A stretch of DNA of 25,325 nucleotides from a virus. Made by a program: the position numbers and the translations under genes. Of the stretch, positions 15,755 to 25,215 are shown piece by piece (the first letter of the stretch is position 1; each line of letters opens with the position of its first letter). A model generated the notes under the pieces. It saw only the letters and a program-made list of their open reading frames with translations, made no database searches and was not told the origin of the DNA. The DNA lies in IMG/VR virus record IMGVR_UViG_3300031841_000660, positions 1-25,325 of that record. One strand, written 5' to 3'.

Positions 15755-15915
15755 GATAAAAAATAATTAAAAGCTTCTTGTTCGTTTTTAATTTCTTGTT
15801 GATAAGAAGTATTTAACTTATCTTGCATCGTTCGTAAAGACTGAGTTACTTGTCTTTGGTTTTCTTCTGTATACTCAGGAGTTGGTTCAGGTATTATTAT
15901 ATCTACTCTAGCCAT
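15751..15915 (-). CDS. Small conserved helical protein, 54 residues
   Basis: Starts MARVDIIIPEPTPEYTEENQ, continues as a Gln/Glu-rich helix and ends EQEAFNYFLS. The N-terminal proline-rich segment followed by a polar helix resembles short proteins found beside tail-hub genes of other marine phages. TAATG overlap with the tail hub stop and ATGA overlap with the next start fix both ends. No membrane segment. Function unknown; an assembly or connector role is possible. Confidence 0.65.
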   Translation of the reverse strand: MARVDIIIPEPTPEYTEENQRQVTQSLRTMQDKLNTSYQQEIKNEQEAFNYFLS

Positions 15916-17816
15916 TATCCCCTCATTCCATCTGGTTGAACATCTGCTCTAAATGTGCCGTATCTCCAACTTTGATCAGTTGAAAGATTAGCTACTTTAA
16001 CACTTGCAAATCTTGACCTTGCACGGGTATCTACTTTATCAGTAGAGCTTGTAATTGTAAACGGCCCTAAAGGTGAACTCGCTGCAGTGCTAGTTGGGTA
16101 ATTTCTCAAATTAATTGTAATTTCTGCATTACCTTGAAGTCTTTTGAAATCAGGAATAAACCTTCTTATACTTAAAAACACTTCACCTTCCCCTAAATCA
16201 AAATCACCTGATTGTATAAATGCAGGTATAGCTGTTTTGTTACCAAGACTATCGACTTGATCTACACCTACCTCATGAGCATAATATGTAGAAGAACCGT
16301 TTGTGTTTGTAACTCCTTGAATAATAGGAAATGTTGGGGTGCCTGTGTTATTAAATTCTGTAGCATAAGGGTTGTCATATAAAGTAGAGTCATGAAATGA
16401 AGTTCTTGCTAAAGAACCTGTCGTCCAAGTGTTTTCTGTATAATTATAAGTTACAACTCTATCAACTTGTTCAGATCCACTCTTAGGATAAAACCAATTT
16501 ATTTCTTCATATAGGTGATTAAGGCCAACATATACTTGTTCCCCTGCACTGTAATTTATTCCTAAATTACTACCAGTGTTTGTAAATACAAAATCTTCAA
16601 CCAAACAAGGGACCGATTTTACTGTACCATCATAAACAAAAAAACCTCCCGCTTGTCCCATCCACCAAACTCTTCCATTTACATAATGTAAGGCATGTTG
16701 ACCAATTAAGCCACAGTTACTTCCAACTTGTCTAATAGAAAAAGTAAATGGAGGACCTACGAACTGCATTACGTATGCAGAAGTATCTGTTAAAATTAAA
16801 ATATAATCTTTACCTTTTGCAGCGCCTACAATTTTTACACCCGAATCTAATCTAAAAGTTCCCGCAGTGTTAACTGAGGTTGGTGCATATTCAGATAAAT
16901 TTTCTTGATCAGAAAATCTAATAAACATTTTATCTTGTCTTGTTGGATCACCAATTACAGTTTCAGTTCCAAGTAAAATTAAATGTCTATCTCTATCTGA
17001 TACAATAGACATAACGGATTTTGTCGGAGCACCACTTACAATAGTTGCTCTTGTTGTTAAAGCATTAGCATCTAAATTAATAGGATTCCAAGAAAAAGTT
17101 TTTCCGTTTTTAATTGTAGCTATCATGACTTGACCAAAATTATCTATTGACCATGAAGCTGGATCAATAATTAAATTACTAACTGTTGAAGCAGATCCCC
17201 AAGTTCCTCTTCCCCATGTGCTTGTTCCCCAACCATATCCTGCGGTGGCATTAAGTGGTCCTGGTTTAACATATGGATTAACAGTTGCGGATCCGGTGCC
17301 CGATGTAGTTCCTGATGCAGCCGATGCCATTGTAATTGTAAAGCTGTTAACTGCTGAAGTTATAACTTCAAACGTATTCGTTGTAAAATCAGATGCAATA
17401 TATCCCGCACCTGAAGGAGGGGTTACTGATGTAAAAGTAAATAAATCTCCAGGTTCTAAACCATGCCCTGCTTTGTTTACTGTGACTGTTGCAGATGTAT
17501 CTGTAGCATCAAAAGTGCATGATGTTAGAGCGGTATCTAAAGGTGTAATGTCATAGAAAGCACCTTCGTAATATATTATTAAAACTTTGTTTGTACCTAT
17601 AGCCGCATATTTTCTACCATCTAAATCAGCCCAAACTAATTGTTCTCGAGCAGCTCCAATAAAAGTATCTGACGTAAGTTGTTCCCAACCACCAATTTTT
17701 TCAGGTTGACCATATCTAAATCTTACGAAGTCTCCATCAGTCCATTGACCTTTTGCTCCGGTTTCAGTAACTTGTTTGTTAAATCCTGGCGCTATTTGTA
17801 TATTTGTTAAAGGCAT
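15915..17816 (-). CDS. Tail hub / DNA-stabilisation protein (P22 gp10 or T7 gp12-like)
   Basis: 633 residues, beta-rich. The N-terminus (IAPGFNKQVTETGAKGQW, then DGDFVRFRYGQPEKIGGWEQ) is typical of the tail nozzle/hub proteins of marine podoviruses. Residues about 105-185 form an inserted Thr/Ser/Gly-rich immunoglobulin-like or beta-sandwich domain, starting near TATDTSATVTVN. Later repeated blade-like stretches (VWWMGQAGGFFVYDG, NHLYEEINWFYPKSG) suggest a beta-propeller. It would close the portal channel and carry fibres. AAGG precedes the ATG at a long spacing. It heads the block of small coupled genes. Family placement is fairly confident, the exact analogue less so. Confidence 0.7.
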   Translation of the reverse strand: MPLTNIQIAPGFNKQVTETGAKGQWTDGDFVRFRYGQPEKIGGWEQLTSDTFIGAAREQLVWADLDGRKYAAIGTNKVLIIYYEGAFYDITPLDTALTSCTFDATDTSATVTVNKAGHGLEPGDLFTFTSVTPPSGAGYIASDFTTNTFEVITSAVNSFTITMASAASGTTSGTGSATVNPYVKPGPLNATAGYGWGTSTWGRGTWGSASTVSNLIIDPASWSIDNFGQVMIATIKNGKTFSWNPINLDANALTTRATIVSGAPTKSVMSIVSDRDRHLILLGTETVIGDPTRQDKMFIRFSDQENLSEYAPTSVNTAGTFRLDSGVKIVGAAKGKDYILILTDTSAYVMQFVGPPFTFSIRQVGSNCGLIGQHALHYVNGRVWWMGQAGGFFVYDGTVKSVPCLVEDFVFTNTGSNLGINYSAGEQVYVGLNHLYEEINWFYPKSGSEQVDRVVTYNYTENTWTTGSLARTSFHDSTLYDNPYATEFNNTGTPTFPIIQGVTNTNGSSTYYAHEVGVDQVDSLGNKTAIPAFIQSGDFDLGEGEVFLSIRRFIPDFKRLQGNAEITINLRNYPTSTAASSPLGPFTITSSTDKVDTRARSRFASVKVANLSTDQSWRYGTFRADVQPDGMRG

Positions 17817-18310: not shown

Positions 18311-18531
18311 TCTTTTCCTTCACAAAGATCATCATCTTTTGTTTGTTTTTGTTTTACTTCTTCAGGAAATCTTTTATGAAACTCACTTACAGCTCTAATA
18401 AGATTATTAGTAAAATGTCTAAAACTCATAGCATCAAGAAAAAACTCACCTTTTTCTTTTATTATTTTTTTCTCTTGTTCACTAAAAATTATCCTACAAC
18501 TTCCATCTTTAGCACTTTGTATAAATCTCAT
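18301..18531 (-). CDS. Hypothetical protein, 76 residues
   Basis: IIFSEQEKKIIKEKGEFFLD is followed by a helix (RHFTNNLIRAVSEFHKRF) and an acidic/Lys tail with CEGKEC. It looks like small marine-phage proteins of the type 'IFS..E..II..KGE' found near tail genes, function unknown. The two cysteines at the end (C-x4-C) might bind metal or pair. Starts with an ATGA overlap with the oxygenase upstream and overlaps the next gene by 10 bases. Confidence 0.55.
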   Translation of the reverse strand: MRFIQSAKDGSCRIIFSEQEKKIIKEKGEFFLDAMSFRHFTNNLIRAVSEFHKRFPEEVKQKQTKDDDLCEGKECP

Positions 18532-19085
18532 TTCATAATCCCATATAACATTCGTTGGTCTTTTTCGTAGTTTTTAAACTCCCCATTTGCATTTACATAA
18601 TGTAAAAACAATTGAGTCTGATAGTCTCCTGTAAAAGGTTTTCTACCATGTTTTATTTTATTACCTAAATATATTATTCCATCCCCAGGTTTAGTTTCTA
18701 TAGGTGTGTCGTTAAAATATAAAGGCCAATCTTCTCTATCTCCATCTATATGAACAGTAACACTTATCTCACAAGAGGGCCTGTCAGTGTGAGGTATTAA
18801 ATAACTCCCGTGACTATAAACTCTCCAAAGAGAATACGATGACAATAGTTCTGTGTTTGTATATTTTTCTACTTTTTCTTTACTTAACAACAATACAGAA
18901 TCCATAACAGCGTCTCCATAATAAGACACTTCTCCACAAGACCTAGAGTCTCCTCCAGGCATAAAATGATCTTCATCTAATATAGTAAACTTCATTTCAG
19001 TAAATTTTTTTAAAACATCTAAAACTTCTTTTTCTAAAAAATTTTCTACTTTTATATAATTAAAGTCTTTACCTATAGTGCCCAT
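18528..19085 (-). CDS. 2OG-Fe(II) dioxygenase
   Basis: 185 residues. YSHGSYLIPHTDRPSCEISV carries the HxD ligands H99 and D101, and H146 in KIKHGRKPFTG is the distal ligand. PGDGIIYLGN and TQLFLHYV are jelly-roll strands. The pattern is that of prolyl-hydroxylase-like (P4Hc) phage proteins. The usual Arg that anchors 2-oxoglutarate is not obvious after the distal His, only the basic R148/K149 nearby. It overlaps the next dioxygenase upstream by 13 bases and precedes the 76-residue gene with an ATGA overlap. Substrate unknown. Iron-dependent dioxygenase assignment is strong, activity inferred. Confidence 0.75.
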   Translation of the reverse strand: MGTIGKDFNYIKVENFLEKEVLDVLKKFTEMKFTILDEDHFMPGGDSRSCGEVSYYGDAVMDSVLLLSKEKVEKYTNTELLSSYSLWRVYSHGSYLIPHTDRPSCEISVTVHIDGDREDWPLYFNDTPIETKPGDGIIYLGNKIKHGRKPFTGDYQTQLFLHYVNANGEFKNYEKDQRMLYGIMK

Positions 19086-19642
19086 GATACTAAAGAATAT
19101 TTTTCACCTTTCTTTACAGGATTAACTTGATGTGGATATAAAAAATTACTTGGCCAAATTAATAACTTATTTTTATTTACCTCTACAGAAATGTTTTTGC
19201 CATAAGGTAATTTAAAAACTAACTCTCCTCCTTCGTAATCATCATTAACTAAATATATAAAACTTAAATTTCTTGGAGCATTTGGACAATGGTCTACATG
19301 TTCTTTGTAAAAACCACCTTCTTTATATTTTAATAACTGTATGTCGTTTATTGTTGAATTAGATTTCGTGTTAGTAATAGTCATGTATTCTTTTATTTTT
19401 TGAGCAAAAACATATTTAAATTTATTAGCCCAATAAACCATAGTTTTACTACTAGCTCCTATATTAAAAAAAGCACAACTGTCAGTAGTTCTTGTTTGTT
19501 TATTTTTTGTTTGTTGTCCATAATCAAAAACTTTAGCTTCATCAAATTTAAATAAACCATCTTTTATACATTTAATAAAAAGACTGTTTTCTTTTTCTTG
19601 CAATAAATTATCAAATTGTACAATATATTTTTCTATTTCCAT
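19073..19642 (-). CDS. 2OG-Fe(II) dioxygenase, P4Hc-type
   Basis: 189 residues. LLKYKEGGFYKEHVDHCP supplies H115 and D117, followed by SFIYLVNDDYEGGELVF, the hallmark 'YLN..yeGGel.F' strand. Distal H171 lies in LYPHQVNPV, and GEKYSLVSWAL ends the fold. The usual Arg of GxRYSLVSW is Lys181 here, a conservative change that may alter 2OG binding. The organisation is that of prolyl 4-hydroxylase-like oxygenases common in cyanophages and other marine phages. It overlaps both neighbours by 10-13 bases, so all are translated together. Target unknown; a structural protein or metabolite is possible. Confidence 0.8.
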   Translation of the reverse strand: MEIEKYIVQFDNLLQEKENSLFIKCIKDGLFKFDEAKVFDYGQQTKNKQTRTTDSCAFFNIGASSKTMVYWANKFKYVFAQKIKEYMTITNTKSNSTINDIQLLKYKEGGFYKEHVDHCPNAPRNLSFIYLVNDDYEGGELVFKLPYGKNISVEVNKNKLLIWPSNFLYPHQVNPVKKGEKYSLVSWAL

Positions 19643-20346
19643 CTTACTTTATTCCAAAAAACATTTTTATATCGGTGTATCAATTCCATAAAATAAGACG
19701 CATCAGACAAATATCTTTTTCTTGCACTTGTTGTTTTAATATTCATTTTCCAAGAATCTCTTTTAAAAGGTATAACTTGAACATAAGGAGTGCCCCTTTT
19801 TAAAACAGTGTCTTGTGCAGGATATTTTTCACCATTAACATAAAATGGAAAATTTACTTCCATATCAAATGTGTCTGTGTTCACAATACCAGATATAATA
19901 GTAAATCTATCATCACTATTATTTAAAGGAGCTGTGAATAAACAAGAATAACCAGGAGGTGTTTTTATAATCCAAGGATTCAATATTTTGTGAGCTGAAG
20001 AGTTTAAATTTTTTTTCTGTATTGGTGATCCAGCAAATTGTCGTGGTGGATGTGTTTCTGCTCTATCAAACATATTTAAATTCATATTAGGTACTTTATT
20101 TGTAGGTTGAAGAACTATATCTGAAATATGTGTGTATTTTAAAATAAAATCTTGAGGAAGACTTAAAAGATATCCTGTTGTTAAAGTTTCCAAAAAAGGT
20201 ATACATCCTTTTATAGTATGGTTATCAGGAGAATGATTAAGGTTTTTAAACCATTCTGGAATATTAAGTTTTATAGGTTTTGGATAATTTTCTTTTAAAT
20301 CAACATAATCTTTATTAGCACTAAAGATAATATTTTTTTCAAACAT
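19633..20346 (-). CDS. Conserved marine-phage protein of unknown function (DUF6065-like)
   Basis: 237 residues with conserved-looking blocks: HTIKGCIPFLETLTTGYLLS, HPPRQFAGSP, NPWIIKTPPGYSCLFTAPLN, FDMEVNFPFYVNG and RGTPYVQVIPFKRDSWKM. I associate this pattern with an uncharacterised family in marine phages often beside 2OG oxygenases. Assignment to DUF6065 is from memory. The fold looks beta-rich, without membrane segments. It begins after a 40-base AT-rich gap with only a weak AAAGA ribosome site and ends overlapping the dioxygenase gene by 10 bases. Co-occurrence hints at a joint function. Confidence 0.5.
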   Translation of the reverse strand: MFEKNIIFSANKDYVDLKENYPKPIKLNIPEWFKNLNHSPDNHTIKGCIPFLETLTTGYLLSLPQDFILKYTHISDIVLQPTNKVPNMNLNMFDRAETHPPRQFAGSPIQKKNLNSSAHKILNPWIIKTPPGYSCLFTAPLNNSDDRFTIISGIVNTDTFDMEVNFPFYVNGEKYPAQDTVLKRGTPYVQVIPFKRDSWKMNIKTTSARKRYLSDASYFMELIHRYKNVFWNKVRWK

Positions 20347-20386: not shown

Positions 20387-20830
20387 TTATGGTAATTGTC
20401 TTAAACTTTTGTGATTTATACCGTTTTCCGAACAATATTCATCCCAACTTTTATATAAAGGCCAAGAAGATATTGTTGAAGTATCGAAAGAATCAATCAC
20501 ACCTTTATAAGTTTCCCAAGTAGATCTATCAGGTCTATTTGGATTTTCAGAAAGCCATTTTTCTATTTCTGAACTTAAAAAATTTAAATGATTTTGAAGA
20601 CCTTCAGCTGTAGCAAAACCATCCTCTCTTTCTACCCAAGTGTAATTAGTTCCATCATGTCCTGATGGATTATGTGTATCATTTTTTAATTTGTTAAAAT
20701 CATCATCTGAAACATCTATTACTATGTGGTCGTCACAGATATTTAGACCATTTTTTTCAGCATCGTTTTCAGCTATTTTATAAATTTTTGTTTTATCTGT
20801 TTCGTTTGGATTTAAAATAAAGTATGCCAT
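20387..20830 (-). CDS. Hypothetical acidic protein, 147 residues
   Basis: AYFILNPNETDKTKIYKIAE begins a short N-terminal domain. Next come VIDVSDDDFNKLKN and a predicted helix HLNFLSSEIEKWLSENP, then a Trp-rich end (STWETYKGVIDSF, WPLYKSWDEYCSENGI). It is acidic with no catalytic motif I recognise. Placed directly after the glycine-rich adhesin gene and translated from its own TAGGAGT site, it could be a fibre-assembly chaperone, by analogy with small proteins following adhesin genes, or a virion protein. This is position-based inference. Confidence 0.5.
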   Translation of the reverse strand: MAYFILNPNETDKTKIYKIAENDAEKNGLNICDDHIVIDVSDDDFNKLKNDTHNPSGHDGTNYTWVEREDGFATAEGLQNHLNFLSSEIEKWLSENPNRPDRSTWETYKGVIDSFDTSTISSWPLYKSWDEYCSENGINHKSLRQLP

Positions 20831-20839
20831 CTGTCACTC

Positions 20840-21562
20840 CTAAGTTAAACTATTTTCATAGAATATAATAGCTCCTGCATTTCCAGAAGTACCTGGTTGT
20901 TGGTTAGTTCCGTTTCCACCGTTTCCAGCGTTCCCTGTGTCATCAATTATCATGAAGTTTTTTGGTGAAAATACTAAGTTTGCTCCCGGTGCACTTCCTC
21001 CACTACCTGGACTACCTGGGTTACCTGGATTACCTTGGTTTCCGCCATTTCCGCCGTTTACTGTAAATAAGTTTGTAAAAGTTGTTGCGCCACCAGGTCC
21101 GCCAGCTGCACTAGGACCGCCGCCACCGCCGCCGCTTCCGATAGAGTATGGGTACGCAGTTCCCCCTGTTAAACTACCGTGATAATATCCATAAGCACCG
21201 CTTCCACCTGCTCCACCATTTTTTCCCCAATTCCAGACGCCGCCACCACCGCCGCCTCCGCCTGACCAAGCGAAAGCTGCGTATGCAGACGAACCAGATG
21301 CTGCAGTAAATGTTCCAGATTGTGCTCTTCCTTGAACTCTCAAAAACATTCCTCCACCACCTCCAGATCCATCAGCAGCAGCTGTTATTCTTCCTTGAGC
21401 ATCTACTGTAATGTCAGCAGTTGTATAAGATCCCGCAGTTACTGCAGTGTTCGCAAGTTTATCTGCAGTTACAGCATCATTATTTATTTGAGTAGTATCG
21501 ACTTCATTCGCATCAATTGCTCCATTGTCAATTACTGTATTTCCATTTGAAATAATACCCAT
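20840..21562 (-). CDS. Glycine-rich tail-fibre adhesin
   Basis: 240 residues. Residues 1-65 ([30 protein letters not shown]) are a fibre-shaft or attachment segment. From residue 66 there are eight Gly tracts (66-71, 101-108, 114-120, 142-149, 154-158, 170-190, 212-218, 224-230), separated by aromatic loops such as VWNWGKN and YGYYHGS. This matches receptor-binding tips built from polyglycine II helices, as in T-even gp38-type adhesins, where loops contact the receptor. [10 protein letters not shown] (177-186) adds collagen-like triplets. GC is clearly higher than around it. AAGGAG lies five bases before the ATG. Confidence 0.65.
21003..21056 (-). repeat. 9-bp tandem repeats in the adhesin gene
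   Basis: On the plus strand ctacctgga, ctacctggg, ttacctgga and ttaccttgg follow each other, then two copies of tttccgcc(a/g). They encode the NPG/SPG and GGN triplets of the glycine-rich tip. Units keep the frame, so slippage would lengthen or shorten the tip without breaking it. Confidence 0.6.
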
Positions 21563-21571
21563 AGAATCTCC

Positions 21572-21790
21572 TTAAATTTTTTCTAACTTTAATCTAAATT
21601 TTTCATTAGATTTATTGTTGATTAAGTATATATCGTCAGAACCCTCCTGTAAAGTCCAACTCCCCTTTGTTCCGTCAACTATATTACCTTCTGTTTTATG
21701 CTCATTATTAAGATGTAAATCCCCCGTGTAAATGTTACGCCAAACGTTTCCTACAGCTCCTAAATCATAGGTATCGTCAGCTCCTGGTGT
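21572..21790 (-). repeat. Fibre C-terminal module, copy 2
   Basis: Encodes the last 72 residues of the 234-residue fibre, the partner of the module at 23455-23673. Both end exactly at the stop of their gene. Confidence 0.75.
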
Positions 21791-22276
21791 TATATGGCCA
21801 CTTGCAGCAATAGCTCCTGAAGTTATTGCTCCTGTTGTGACAGCTCCTAAAGTGTTTAGGTTGGCATTTACATCAATAATATTTGTTCCATTGCTGTAAA
21901 GAATTTTTATTCCTTTATCAGTAGTTGAAAAAGTAGATCCAGTTCCACTAGCTGTTTTAAACTCAACAGTAAAAGCTCCAGATGTGTTGTTATAAACAAT
22001 ATAAGATTTTTCTATGCTATCTGGCACTGTCACAATTTGATTTCCTGTAATTGTTCCAGATAATTCTATAATCAAATTTCTTGCATCAGAAGATGAAGTA
22101 GAACCATCCGCTATTAACAAAGCTGTAGTTTGCGCACCACCTGCAATAGATTTATTTACATAACCTTGCATTTGGTTAATGATTTCTAAATTTGTGTTTG
22201 TTTTAGTTCCCCAAGTACCGTCATTGGCACCTGTAACCATTAGTTCTATTCCAAGATCAGTATATGTTGATGACAT
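21572..22276 (-). CDS. Tail-fibre protein with shared C-terminal module
   Basis: 234 residues. The N-terminus (YTDLGIELMVTGANDGTWGT then TNTNLEIINQMQGYVNKS) is the common start of podovirus/myovirus fibre proteins. The middle is Thr/Ser/Gly-rich beta structure (LNTLGAVTTGAITSGAI). The last 72 residues (from TPGADDTYDLG to the end) closely match the last 72 of the 586-residue fibre, with about 50 identical residues by eye. Such tips may bind receptors or assist trimerisation. An AAGG ribosome site lies at a long spacing before the ATG. Confidence 0.65.
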   Translation of the reverse strand: MSSTYTDLGIELMVTGANDGTWGTKTNTNLEIINQMQGYVNKSIAGGAQTTALLIADGSTSSSDARNLIIELSGTITGNQIVTVPDSIEKSYIVYNNTSGAFTVEFKTASGTGSTFSTTDKGIKILYSNGTNIIDVNANLNTLGAVTTGAITSGAIAASGHITPGADDTYDLGAVGNVWRNIYTGDLHLNNEHKTEGNIVDGTKGSWTLQEGSDDIYLINNKSNEKFRLKLEKI

Positions 22277-22282
22277 GTCGGT

Positions 22283-22311
22283 ATTATATCCTTTCTAGGC
22301 TGCTAGATCAA
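22283..22311 (-). promoter_or_regulatory. Weak candidate promoter before the 234-residue fibre gene
   Basis: On the minus strand TTGATC (22311-22306), 17 bases, then TATAAT (22288-22283). Spacing and -10 are ideal. Predicted transcription start is at or near the ATG (22276), so the RNA would be leaderless, and AAGGA overlapping the box could equally be the ribosome site. Low confidence. Confidence 0.25.
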
Positions 22312-23209
22312 CCTCAGTCCAAACGTTAGATACACCAGGATCAATTTCAGCCCATGCTGTTATATTTGGATTTCCTGTATTTGTTTGTAATTGAATTCCA
22401 GTCACATCTATATCGGCAGTTCCAGTTACTGTAACGGATCCTACAGATGTGGACATTTGAATACCTGTAACGGCATATCTGGTTTCTTGTTCTACATCTC
22501 CAATAGAACTTGTTAATTGAATTCCTGTTAAAGAAACATTAGCATCTGCTGTGGGAACTTCTTCTCCCATAGACATTGTCAATTGTTGACCGGTAACTTC
22601 AACAGTATGATCTGTAAATGCAGACTCATCTCCTAATGTCATGGTCATTTGAGTGCCAGTAACTGAAACGTTTGCTATACCTGTAATACTTACATCTCCA
22701 ACAGAAGTATTCATTGTATGTTCAGTGACAACTACTGAAACATTACCATCAGCTGTAATCGAGAAAGTTCCTAGTGTTGTTTGAAGTTCCATACCATCAA
22801 CTTCTCCAGCGCCAGTAGTTGCTTCAACTACAACACTCGGTATATTAAAGGTACTAGGACTTAGTGTTGCAAAAGGAGCTTCTCCAAAAGCAGCTAAAGT
22901 ATCTTGCGTAGAAGTTTTGTTTGTAATAGATAACTGTTGACCGGTTACAGGAACACCTACATTAATATCTTCTTCTCCTATTGATGTAGTTAATGATATA
23001 CCTGTAACAGAAACATTTACAGAAGACCCGCCAATAGCACCTGCGTTTGTAATCGTTGCTTGGATACCAGTTAACTCAATATTGTTATCCCCCTCAGTTC
23101 CAGAAGCTCCAACAGATCCTGTAAGGACACTTCCTTGAGGATAAGCAATGGCGTTATTATCTTCTGCTGAAAAGGCCGCTTCAGAATATGCGGTATTACC
23201 AAAAGCCAT
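22295..23209 (-). CDS. Beta-repeat tail-fibre protein
   Basis: 304 residues built mostly of about ten degenerate units of roughly 20-23 residues, each like V.VTGIQLT.SIGDV (TG at residues 47, 69, 89, 184, 206, 228, 248 and 270). The regular alternation suits a beta-solenoid or trimeric beta-fibre shaft. N-terminus AFGNTAYSEAAFSAED and C-terminus ITAWAEIDPGVSNVWTEVDL recall marine-phage fibre or baseplate-attached proteins. No enzyme motif. AAAGGAG inside the end of the 80-residue gene is the ribosome site. Fibre role is inferred from the repeats and neighbours. Confidence 0.65.
   Translation of the reverse strand: MAFGNTAYSEAAFSAEDNNAIAYPQGSVLTGSVGASGTEGDNNIELTGIQATITNAGAIGGSSVNVSVTGISLTTSIGEEDINVGVPVTGQQLSITNKTSTQDTLAAFGEAPFATLSPSTFNIPSVVVEATTGAGEVDGMELQTTLGTFSITADGNVSVVVTEHTMNTSVGDVSITGIANVSVTGTQMTMTLGDESAFTDHTVEVTGQQLTMSMGEEVPTADANVSLTGIQLTSSIGDVEQETRYAVTGIQMSTSVGSVTVTGTADIDVTGIQLQTNTGNPNITAWAEIDPGVSNVWTEVDLAA
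22355..23077 (-). repeat. Degenerate 60-69-bp coding repeats in the beta-repeat fibre gene
   Basis: Units encode variants of VTG(I/Q/T)Q(L/M)(T/S)xSxGxV. Consensus positions are conserved at protein level while the bases have drifted, so these are old duplications kept by selection. The unit around residues 105-160 is irregular. Confidence 0.6.
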
Positions 23210-23212
23210 AGA

Positions 23213-23455
23213 CTAGGCTCCTTTTTGTTCTTGATCGAATCCTTCTTGTAACATTTCAGAGGTAGTTTTTTCTTCCTCTGGAAGTTCTTTACTAAGTAGA
23301 TCAGAGTAGTGTTTTTGTAAAACTTCGCAATCAGTAAATTCTAAACTTAATTGATTTTTTTTTACAACTATGTTTTGTAATTTTTGTAAATACACTTTCC
23401 CTTGATCAGATAACTTTTCACTATCGTAATGTTTTTTGTCAAAATTAAATATCAT
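23213..23455 (-). CDS. Small helical protein, 80 residues (DUF6447-like)
   Basis: HYDSEKLSDQGKVYLQKLQN opens a helical protein, followed by ECxV-type residues (FTDCEVLQKHYSDLLSKEL) and an acidic end. The 'Y....LS...K' pattern is like a small uncharacterised phage family (DUF6447) encoded between fibre genes; the match is from memory. It starts TAATG-coupled to the stop of the 586-residue fibre. A fibre-assembly chaperone is a reasonable guess. Confidence 0.5.
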   Translation of the reverse strand: MIFNFDKKHYDSEKLSDQGKVYLQKLQNIVVKKNQLSLEFTDCEVLQKHYSDLLSKELPEEEKTTSEMLQEGFDQEQKGA

Positions 23456-23673
23456 TACATCTCTTCTAATTTAAATCTGTATTTCTTACCAGACTTATTA
23501 TTTAAAATATATAAATGTTCAGCACCCTCTTGAATAGTCCAATTACCTTTTGTACCATCAATAGCATTACCTTCATCTTTTGCTTCGTTAGATAAATGTA
23601 AGTCACCAGTGTATATGTTTCTCCATACATTTCCTGATGCACCTAAATCATAAGTGTCAGTTGCTCCTGGAAC
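23455..23673 (-). repeat. Fibre C-terminal module, copy 1
   Basis: Encodes the last 72 residues of the 586-residue fibre (from VPGATDTYDLG). Copy 2 is at 21572-21790. Protein identity is about 50 of 72 by eye. DNA differs at most third positions. Confidence 0.75.
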
Positions 23674-25215
23674 TACAGCACCGGTTACAGTTAAAGTAGA
23701 ACCATCAAATGTCATGTTCGCTTCAGCATTCATTCCATCTGTGCCTGTTGCAGTTACAATTCTATTGTTAGAACCATTGGTCATAAAGTCTGATACATCT
23801 ACAGCAATTGCATCTGCTGAAACATCTATACCAGTTCCTGCTCCAACATTTAAAGTAACATCACCTGTAGTTCCGCCACCTGTTAAACCGTTTCCAGCTG
23901 TAACGCCTGTAATGTCAGCAGAAATAGTTTGATATTCTAAAGCAGTTCCTCCAGAATTAACGGCAAGAACTTGATTTGCAGTTCCGATCGCAGTTAAGCC
24001 TGTACCACCTTTTGTAGTTGGAACAGTAGGTAATCTGTCTGATGCTAAAGTTCCTGAAGCAATGTTAGTTGCGTTTAAAGCTGTTAGTGCAGAACCATTT
24101 AAAGCTGGAAGTGTAGAAGGAAACCTTGCGTCAGGAACAGTTCCTGAACTTAAATTAGAAGCATTTAAAGCAGATCCATCAATGAATCCACTGTCATTAT
24201 TAAAACCTGAAATAGCAATATTGCCTTTTGTAAGTTTTTTTTCAGCTCCAACAGAATCAACTACAACAAAGAAATCACCATCGGCATCTGCTGTAGATGT
24301 TGTTAGTAAGTTTAAATCTATTCTAGCAATTGGAACTGTACCACTTGCTAAATTTGAAGCGTTTAAATTTGTTAAAGCAGAACCATTTAAAGCTGGAAGT
24401 GTTGCTGGAAATCTAGCATCTGGTACTGTACCACTTGCTAAATTAGTTGCATTTAAAGAAGTTAAATTTGCTCCACTGACAGCAGGAAGTGTTGCTGGGA
24501 ATCTTGCATCTGGAATAGTTCCAGAAGTTAAATTGTCTGCATTTAAAGCTGTCAAATCAATTGTCGTCCAAGAAAGTTGAGCTTGCGCATTACCATCGGT
24601 AGTTAGAACCTGTCCTGAAGTCCCATCGTTAACTGGTAATATCCATTCCCAAGTTGCATTGGCTGCGTGAGCAGGAGATGTTATTTTAACTCCGTGAGAG
24701 TTCTGAGAACAGTTTAAAATTAATTGTCCATCGGCACTCGCTCCATCACCTTTAATAGTTAAAGGTCTTGATGCATTAATAACTTTATCACTTATAGGAC
24801 TTGGAAGTCTTGCGTTATCAACAGTGCCACTTGCTAAATTAGTGGCATTTAAATTTGTTAAGTTAGATCCATTATTTGCAACAATGTTTCCACTTGAATC
24901 TAGGATAACAGCTTTGGAAGCAGGTAAGGTACAGAAAACATTTTTTGTTCCTGCACCAAAGTTTACTGCAGAGTCACTGTTAGACGAAGAGATAATTGTA
25001 TCTCTAGATAATGTATCTGTAGCTGCATCGGTTACAGTTCCAAGACCAACTTCGAACTCACCGTTTTCGTTAACGATAGCGTAATAAGTGGTATTAGAAT
25101 TACCAATACCTGTAACGAACGATTCAAAACCGGATACCGCTCCTGCTAAATCAAATGTACCTGTACCTGTTGTGGTAGAGGTTTCTTTTACTCTATCGTT
25201 TACTACCAAAGCCAT
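23455..25215 (-). CDS. Tail-fibre protein with 30-residue repeats
   Basis: 586 residues. The N-terminal 100 residues (ALVVNDRVKETSTTTGTGTF, FVTGIGN, TTYYAIVN, GLGTVTDAATDTLSRD) are a virion-attachment domain common in marine phages. The middle carries repeats of the form NATNLASGTVPDARFPATLP at residues about 122, 224, 254, 284, 350 and 380, spaced by 30 where contiguous, interrupted by other beta segments. The C-terminal 72 residues are the module also found in the 234-residue fibre (YDLGASGNVWRNIYTGDLHL). TAGGAGT precedes the ATG. Main fibre function is well supported; receptor unknown. Confidence 0.75.
   Translation of the reverse strand: MALVVNDRVKETSTTTGTGTFDLAGAVSGFESFVTGIGNSNTTYYAIVNENGEFEVGLGTVTDAATDTLSRDTIISSSNSDSAVNFGAGTKNVFCTLPASKAVILDSSGNIVANNGSNLTNLNATNLASGTVDNARLPSPISDKVINASRPLTIKGDGASADGQLILNCSQNSHGVKITSPAHAANATWEWILPVNDGTSGQVLTTDGNAQAQLSWTTIDLTALNADNLTSGTIPDARFPATLPAVSGANLTSLNATNLASGTVPDARFPATLPALNGSALTNLNASNLASGTVPIARIDLNLLTTSTADADGDFFVVVDSVGAEKKLTKGNIAISGFNNDSGFIDGSALNASNLSSGTVPDARFPSTLPALNGSALTALNATNIASGTLASDRLPTVPTTKGGTGLTAIGTANQVLAVNSGGTALEYQTISADITGVTAGNGLTGGGTTGDVTLNVGAGTGIDVSADAIAVDVSDFMTNGSNNRIVTATGTDGMNAEANMTFDGSTLTVTGAVVPGATDTYDLGASGNVWRNIYTGDLHLSNEAKDEGNAIDGTKGNWTIQEGAEHLYILNNKSGKKYRFKLEEM
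24046..24560 (-). repeat. 90-bp tandem coding repeats in the main fibre gene
   Basis: On the plus strand ccacttgctaaatt at 24341 recurs at 24431, with a diverged copy at 24521; ttcctgaa at 24051 recurs at 24141. The period is exactly 90 bases (30 residues), with a spacer segment between the two groups and a further lone copy near 24827. Frame is kept. Confidence 0.7.

What the first reader, a model, noticed from the sequence alone, without database searches (positions are those of the whole stretch)
20840..21562. Glycine-rich adhesin with polyglycine-helix layout and slippable 9-bp repeats
Eight Gly tracts separated by aromatic and polar loops match the gp38-type receptor-binding architecture, where loops vary and Gly helices form the core. 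Frame-keeping 9-bp repeats (21003-21056) offer a simple way to change the tip. Higher GC than surroundings hints at exchange by recombination.
Basis: partly seen in the sequence, partly recalled or inferred. Interest (0 to 1): 0.6.

Follow-up and report, generated by a model that had tools for sequence, protein, structure and literature searches.

The report
Swappable glycine-rich tail-fibre tip
This gene most likely encodes the host-gripping tip of a marine phage tail fibre; related phages keep the mounting end constant, vary the tip, and exchange the two at one fixed joint, with the tip made either as its own protein or fused to the fibre.

Summary
The ORF is real: 240 aa, 25.8% Gly. It has a 27-residue docking peptide, a short shaft, an almost invariant hinge ([15 protein letters not shown]) and a Gly-rich tip. 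With 66 relatives AlphaFold2 folds the tip well (pLDDT mostly 91-97). The best solved matches are Pam3 tail fibre gp24 (Z 17.6, 2.4 A over 163 residues), Bxb1 tail tip and the ALK/LTK TG domain. This is the TNF-like plus glycine-rich (PF21722) fold, not the T-even gp38 family (no sequence match; fold comparison inconclusive). Tip loops are hypervariable (same-anchor tips about 40% identical, anchors about 90%).

The GC excess is glycine codons; the 9-bp repeats are no more alike than synonymous recodings (P 0.11), and close relatives show no copy-number change.

What is new: identical or similar tips sit on two unrelated mounts, a separate short protein (as here) or a fused 410-aa fibre. In the six pairs examined homology begins at the same place, codon 28-29, just before the hinge. 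One pair is 99.3% identical over 4.7 kb of DNA downstream with unrelated anchors. The tip tree needs 13 mount changes, at least 6 well supported. The phage resembles HTVC023P-type pelagiphages. Receptor binding itself is inferred.

The parts
20840..21562 (-). Glycine-rich fibre-tip protein, 240 aa (the finding)
   Evidence: ORF; AF2 pLDDT 82.9 with 66 relatives; fold match to Pam3 gp24
21482..21562 (-). Residues 1-27, docking peptide [27 protein letters not shown], found only in the split (two-piece) form
   Evidence: homology to fused relatives begins only at nt 82-84 of the gene; codons more conserved than the rest, 0.74 against 0.57-0.45
21377..21481 (-). Residues 28-62, shaft repeat and near-invariant hinge ([20 protein letters not shown]), the crossover zone
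   Evidence: invariant columns Y46 T47 I51-R58 T60 over 66 sequences; entropy 0.35 bits against 2.01 in the tip; homology breakpoints; 3 of the 11 SNPs against L086 lie within 7 nt at the hinge end (codons 61-63)
20843..21349 (-). Residues 72-240, TNF-like plus glycine-rich (PF21722-type) tip with hypervariable loops
   Evidence: AF2 tip pLDDT mostly 91-97; VIA Z 17.6 to 7YPX; Gly columns 1.13 bits against 2.39 for non-Gly
20387..20830 (-). 147-aa gene directly downstream; candidate fibre-assembly chaperone (by position)
   Evidence: an ORF of 134-171 aa at gap -1 to 16 nt follows the tip gene at every locus with enough downstream sequence; same layout as Pam3 gp24-gp25; no sequence match to gp25
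21572..22276 (-). 234-aa upstream fibre gene: same kind of N-terminal anchor as the fused form, ending in the GDLHLNNEHK...FRLKLEKI module; presumed mount of the short tip protein
   Evidence: a gene with this kind of C-terminal module lies upstream of the tip at every split locus where it could be read (usually 8-11 nt away), and at no fused locus; phrog_31104
21568..21573 (-). Shine-Dalgarno AAGGAG of the tip gene, overlapping the upstream stop codon TAA (21572-21574)
   Evidence: read from the sequence
21002..21059 (.). The 9-bp repeats (two short arrays), encoding Gly-X-X
   Evidence: no excess over synonymous recodings

Best explanation
The gene encodes the receptor-binding tip of a tail fibre of an HTVC023P-like marine phage. 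The tip is a TNF-like plus glycine-rich (PF21722, 'TG') domain: a conserved lattice of Gly runs holds up hypervariable loops that touch the host. In this phage the tip is a separate short protein: a 27-residue docking peptide and short shaft attach it (inferred) to a fibre made by the 234-aa upstream gene, and the 147-aa downstream gene probably helps it fold (inferred). In relatives the same kind of tip is instead fused to a fibre anchor in one 410-aa protein. Recombination within the conserved hinge region (codons 28-62) exchanges tips and everything downstream between different anchors, so host specificity can change without altering the mount. Shown: ORF, relatives, loop variability, breakpoints, repeated mount changes. 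Predicted: fold. Inferred: virion location, receptor binding, docking partner, chaperone.
For: AF2 with 66 relatives gives a confident tip, matching Pam3 gp24 7YPX Z 17.6, rmsd 2.4 over 163 residues, 30% identity; Bxb1 tail tip Z 16.1; ALK/LTK TG domain about Z 9. A sequence profile finds Pam3 fibre at E 1.5e-4 in the PDB; hhalign to gp24 E 2.4e-5. PF21722 in 39 of 66 relatives, L007 and L123 above its cut-off. [quoted passage not shown] Breakpoint at codon 28-29 in all six pairs compared; L063/L013 tips 99% identical, anchors 16%. Tip tree: 13 mount changes, at least 6 forced by supported branches. Hinge-tip correlation 0.00 in the split class, tip-downstream gene 0.30, p 0.002. Two syntenic layouts with no exception among readable loci.
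Against: No experiment: virion location and receptor binding are inferred from fold, neighbours and variability. The window protein alone scores below the PF21722 cut-off (17.8 against 24.3 bits). Residues 1-64 are modelled mostly with low confidence, so docking is untested. The downstream protein shows no sequence similarity to Pam3 gp25. Correlations are modest, and the tip-chaperone association is no stronger than physical linkage would give.
Confidence: 0.75

Rival explanations
1. It is a true member of the T-even gp38 adhesin family: a monomer with a polyglycine-II sandwich sitting on a gp37-like trimer.
For: Same overall idea: about 240-250 aa, separate gene after a fibre gene, Gly runs with hypervariable loops; S16 gp38 is 249 aa and follows gp37.
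Against: hhalign probability 1.7%; no PF05268 hit at E up to 1 while the S16 control scores 246 bits; the best fold matches are Pam3 and TG domains; the N-terminus matches marine fibre proteins instead.
Confidence: 0.07
2. It is a virion tail-tip or decoration protein with the TG fold whose variability is drift or evasion rather than receptor binding.
For: Bxb1 tail-tip proteins share the fold and no binding data exist.
Against: Gly core columns are held (1.13 bits) while loops diverge (2.39 bits); repeated exchange at the hinge; fibre anchor upstream.
Confidence: 0.13
3. Diversity is generated locally by slippage of the 9-bp repeats.
For: Short 9-bp arrays are present and keep frame.
Against: No excess repeat identity over synonymous recodings; 18 of 25 close tip pairs have no indel and the other indels are 1-3 aa, none a repeat unit; same repeat number in L086.
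Confidence: 0.03
4. The anchor/tip mosaics are metagenome assembly chimeras joined at the conserved hinge.
For: All loci are metagenomic contigs and the hinge is conserved.
Against: The L063 type occurs in three contigs; L063 and L013 differ inside the hinge, so no long exact word is shared there; most of the other mosaic pairs differ by 10-31% in DNA, which mis-joining of shared sequence does not give; both layouts are regular in gene order and spacing.
Confidence: 0.04

Closest known systems
Pseudanabaena phage Pam3 tail fibre gp24 with chaperone gp25 (PDB 7YPX, 7YFW; PMC9608196)
   Same: TNF-like plus glycine-rich tip, conserved Gly stem with hypervariable end; an assembly gene of about 160 aa 11 nt downstream
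   Different: Pam3 fibre is one protein with a long N-terminal alpha-helical docking domain; here a short docking peptide plus hinge; the downstream protein is not detectably similar to gp25
Pfam PF21722 Gly_rich_2 (glycine-rich domain, including HTVC023P gp70 and gp59)
   Same: Relatives score above the family cut-off; the same domain type occurs in the cultured pelagiphage HTVC023P
   Different: The window protein itself is below the cut-off; the hinge and the one-piece/two-piece switching are not part of the family definition
T-even gp38 adhesins (Salmonella phage S16, E. coli phage PP01)
   Same: Works alike: Gly-rich core, hypervariable loops, separate tip protein behind a fibre gene
   Different: No sequence homology, different Pfam family, different N-terminal part
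ALK/LTK receptor TG domains
   Same: Similar fold, Z about 9
   Different: Animal receptors; no functional relation claimed

Membership tests
PF21722 / TNF-like plus glycine-rich (TG) phage tip | Profile match above the curated cut-off | tested here: inconclusive
   window 17.8 bits against 24.3; orthologues L007 38.1 and L123 26.6 pass; 39 of 66 match at E <= 0.01
PF21722 / TNF-like plus glycine-rich (TG) phage tip | TNF-like sheets with a Gly-run lattice, structure alignable over the domain | tested here: met
   AF2 model to 7YPX Z 17.6, 2.4 A over 163 residues
Pam3-type fibre plus separate assembly chaperone | Trimeric fibre | not testable with these tools
   only monomer prediction was available
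Pam3-type fibre plus separate assembly chaperone | Adjacent gene of about 150 aa homologous to gp25 / TFA | tested here: inconclusive
   adjacent gene present at all testable loci; no sequence match to gp25; weak PHROG hits to chaperone or assembly families in a few of 42 members; fold not predicted
T-even gp38 adhesin (PF05268) | Match to the GP38 profile | tested here: not met
   no hit at E <= 1; S16 control 246 bits; hhalign 1.7%
T-even gp38 adhesin (PF05268) | Polyglycine-II sandwich on a beta-helix domain (6F45 fold) | tested here: inconclusive
T-even gp38 adhesin (PF05268) | Separate tip protein bound to a trimeric fibre | not testable with these tools
   gene order fits; complex not predicted

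The most novel reading that the evidence does not exclude
HTVC023P-like and related marine phages use one conserved hinge as a recombination joint that separates fibre mount from receptor-binding tip, so that the same tip pool circulates between a fused one-piece fibre and a split two-piece fibre, with repeated conversions between the two designs in nature.
Probability: 0.5. Interest if true: 0.65.

Novelty: new variant of a known kind. Interest (0 to 1): 0.5.

Why it matters
How phages of SAR11-like ocean bacteria recognise hosts is poorly known. The data name a specific candidate adhesin, its hypervariable loops and its exact joint, and give natural pairs with nearly identical tips on unrelated mounts (for example L063 and L013), which makes host recognition testable. 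They also show natural switching between one-piece and two-piece fibres, comparable to the T4-like and T2-like designs. I found no description of this in the pelagiphage papers searched; only open-licence papers could be searched.

Tried and rejected
Single-sequence AF2 of the protein gave pLDDT 34.7 and was discarded. phmmer of the single sequence against the PDB found nothing. Slippage, GC-based foreign origin and gp38 family were tested and rejected. S16 gp38 (6F45) did not appear in the fold lists; this is not evidence of a different fold. Profile searches of the downstream 147-aa family against PDB, Pfam, NCBIfam and PHROGs gave only scattered weak hits. NCBIfam had nothing for the tip. 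Diversity-generating retroelement: no second copy of the tip sequence was seen when L086 was aligned to the window; nothing more was tested. Tip-chaperone association exists (rho 0.30-0.41) but is no stronger than that of the chaperone with the next gene (0.58-0.68), so specific co-evolution is not claimed.

Full report
OBSERVATION. The window is itself a complete record of the collection, a linear viral contig of 25,325 bases. The ORF at 20840-21562 on the - strand is real, 240 aa. It starts behind AAGGAG, 5 nt from the ATG, which overlaps the stop codon of the upstream gene, as expected for coupled translation. Gly makes up 25.8%; there are 12 runs of two or more Gly, three of them long. Overall GC is 0.462 against 0.337, but four-fold third positions at non-Gly codons are 0.10 GC, within the range of the other genes (0.02-0.19), so the excess is amino-acid composition, mainly glycine codons. 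The 9-bp repeats are two different short arrays; their period-9 identity is matched or beaten by 11% of synonymous recodings of the same peptide.

WHICH PHAGE. The 633-aa structural protein (15915-17816) is closest to pelagiphages HTVC023P and HTVC027P (57-59% identity). Gene order nearby (2OG-Fe(II) oxygenases, 'ferrochelatase' family, glycosyltransferase, helicase) agrees in outline with those genomes. SAR11 as host is therefore an inference.

ANATOMY FROM RELATIVES. The hinge ITVDAQGR also occurs in many marine phage fibre proteins with other C-termini, and the N-terminal part with the hinge matches cyanophage proteins. Among proteins with a Gly-rich tip there are two mounts. The split form, as in this window, is 226-266 aa and begins [26 protein letters not shown]. 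The fused form is usually 403-433 aa and begins like M(A/T)SSYSxDLKLELMVTGENAGTWG. At split loci the gene just upstream ends in a GDLHLNNEHK...FRLKLEKI-type module (in L017, L021 and L025 a more distant version), and where its start could be read it usually begins with the same kind of anchor as the fused form. At fused loci the gene just upstream is the relative of the 304-aa gene. So the fused form is one piece, and the split form is the same kind of anchor ending early plus a new short tip protein.

FOLD. Alone, the protein cannot be modelled (pLDDT 34.7). With a 66-row alignment (A1) AF2 reaches mean pLDDT 82.9, with the tip mostly 91-97, dipping to 70-81 around residues 191-210 and to 83 at both ends of the tip. 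The fold is not predicted disordered. VIA-align gives Pam3 tail fibre Z 17.6 (2.4 A, 163 residues, 30% identity), Bxb1 tail tip Z 16.1, and ALK/LTK TG domains about 9; Foldseek agrees on Pam3 (E 5.5e-7). The sequence profile independently finds Pam3 fibre. [quoted passage not shown] It places the dihedral angles of the Gly motifs close to beta-sheet, so a polyglycine-II core should not be assumed for this protein; it was not tested here. The T-even gp38 family is not matched by sequence.

VARIABILITY. Mean column entropy is 0.35 bits in the hinge and 2.01 in the tip; within the tip, Gly positions average 1.13 and non-Gly 2.39. Split-form anchors are about 90% identical at the median while their tips are about 40%. 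Close tip pairs (70-99% identical) differ by substitutions: 18 of 25 have no indel, and the other indels are 1-3 residues with no repeat-unit pattern. The second contig of this same phage, L086, differs by 11 SNPs in 6,451 nt; three of them fall within 7 nt at the hinge end (P 0.0004 by simulation), and the repeat number is unchanged.

EXCHANGE. Tips on different mounts can be nearly identical: L063 (fused) and L013 (split) have tips 99% identical and anchors 16%. Their DNA is 99.3% identical over 4,743 nt from codon 28 of the split gene to the end of the L013 contig, with no detected similarity upstream. In all six pairs compared, including the window with L002 and L003, homology starts at nt 82-84 of the split gene. 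Codon identity where the amino acid is the same falls from 0.74 in residues 2-27 to 0.57-0.60 in 28-58 and 0.45 in the tip, as expected if the dock spread onto many right arms by crossovers in the hinge region. On a tree of 61 tips the mount changes at least 13 times, 6 of them forced by well-supported branches. Within the split class hinge and tip distances are uncorrelated (rho 0.00), whereas tip and downstream genes correlate (0.25-0.40, p <= 0.008); the 27-residue dock is short and conserved, so this test is weak on the left side. In the fused class the contrast is smaller (hinge-tip 0.20, tip-downstream gene 0.41). The exchange is one-sided: the tip travels with the downstream genes, so a tip-only cassette is not shown.

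DOWNSTREAM GENE. Every tip gene with enough downstream sequence is followed, at -1 to 16 nt, by an ORF of 134-171 aa, as Pam3 gp24 is followed by gp25. Sequence searches do not connect it to known chaperones, so the role is inferred from position, size and precedent.

VERDICT. The protein is best explained as a TG-fold fibre-tip adhesin. The unusual part is the fixed joint at which tips are recombined onto two alternative mounts, one fused and one split. The fold is known; the joint and the repeated one-piece/two-piece conversion were not found described in the papers I could search.

Noticed in passing
window 23448-23670 and the 3' end of 21572-22276: The C-terminal GDLHL module of the 234-aa gene is duplicated at the end of the 586-aa fibre gene (73% DNA identity over 229 nt).
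   Followed up: partly
window 24322-24515: 90-nt tandem repeat (2.2 copies, 78%) inside the 586-aa fibre gene, from repeats such as LNATNLASGTVPDARFPATLPA.
   Followed up: no
window 22295-23209: 304-aa gene built of VTGIQxTxSxG-type repeats with no convincing family match; relatives precede the fused fibre in nearly every readable fused locus and end ...ITAWAEIDxGVxNTWTxVDLAA.
   Followed up: partly
window 18528-20346: Directly after the tip and the 147-aa gene lie a phrog_7084/DUF6065-like gene, a 2OG-Fe(II) oxygenase and a phrog_2954 gene, a family annotated as ferrochelatase.
   Followed up: no
L082 235-5931 and L084 3084-7291: HTVC023P has four, and 023Pt_psg01 three, large tandem Gly-rich proteins with ends such as GGSGxVxIRYKFQ, plus HTVC023P gp70 (308 aa, Gly-rich) directly after an anchor-type gene gp69: more candidate adhesins in pelagiphages.
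   Followed up: partly
L138, L140, L072, L148 and others: The hinge ITVDAQGR occurs in many marine phage fibre proteins with other N-termini and non-Gly C-termini, which suggests a general-purpose joint.
   Followed up: no
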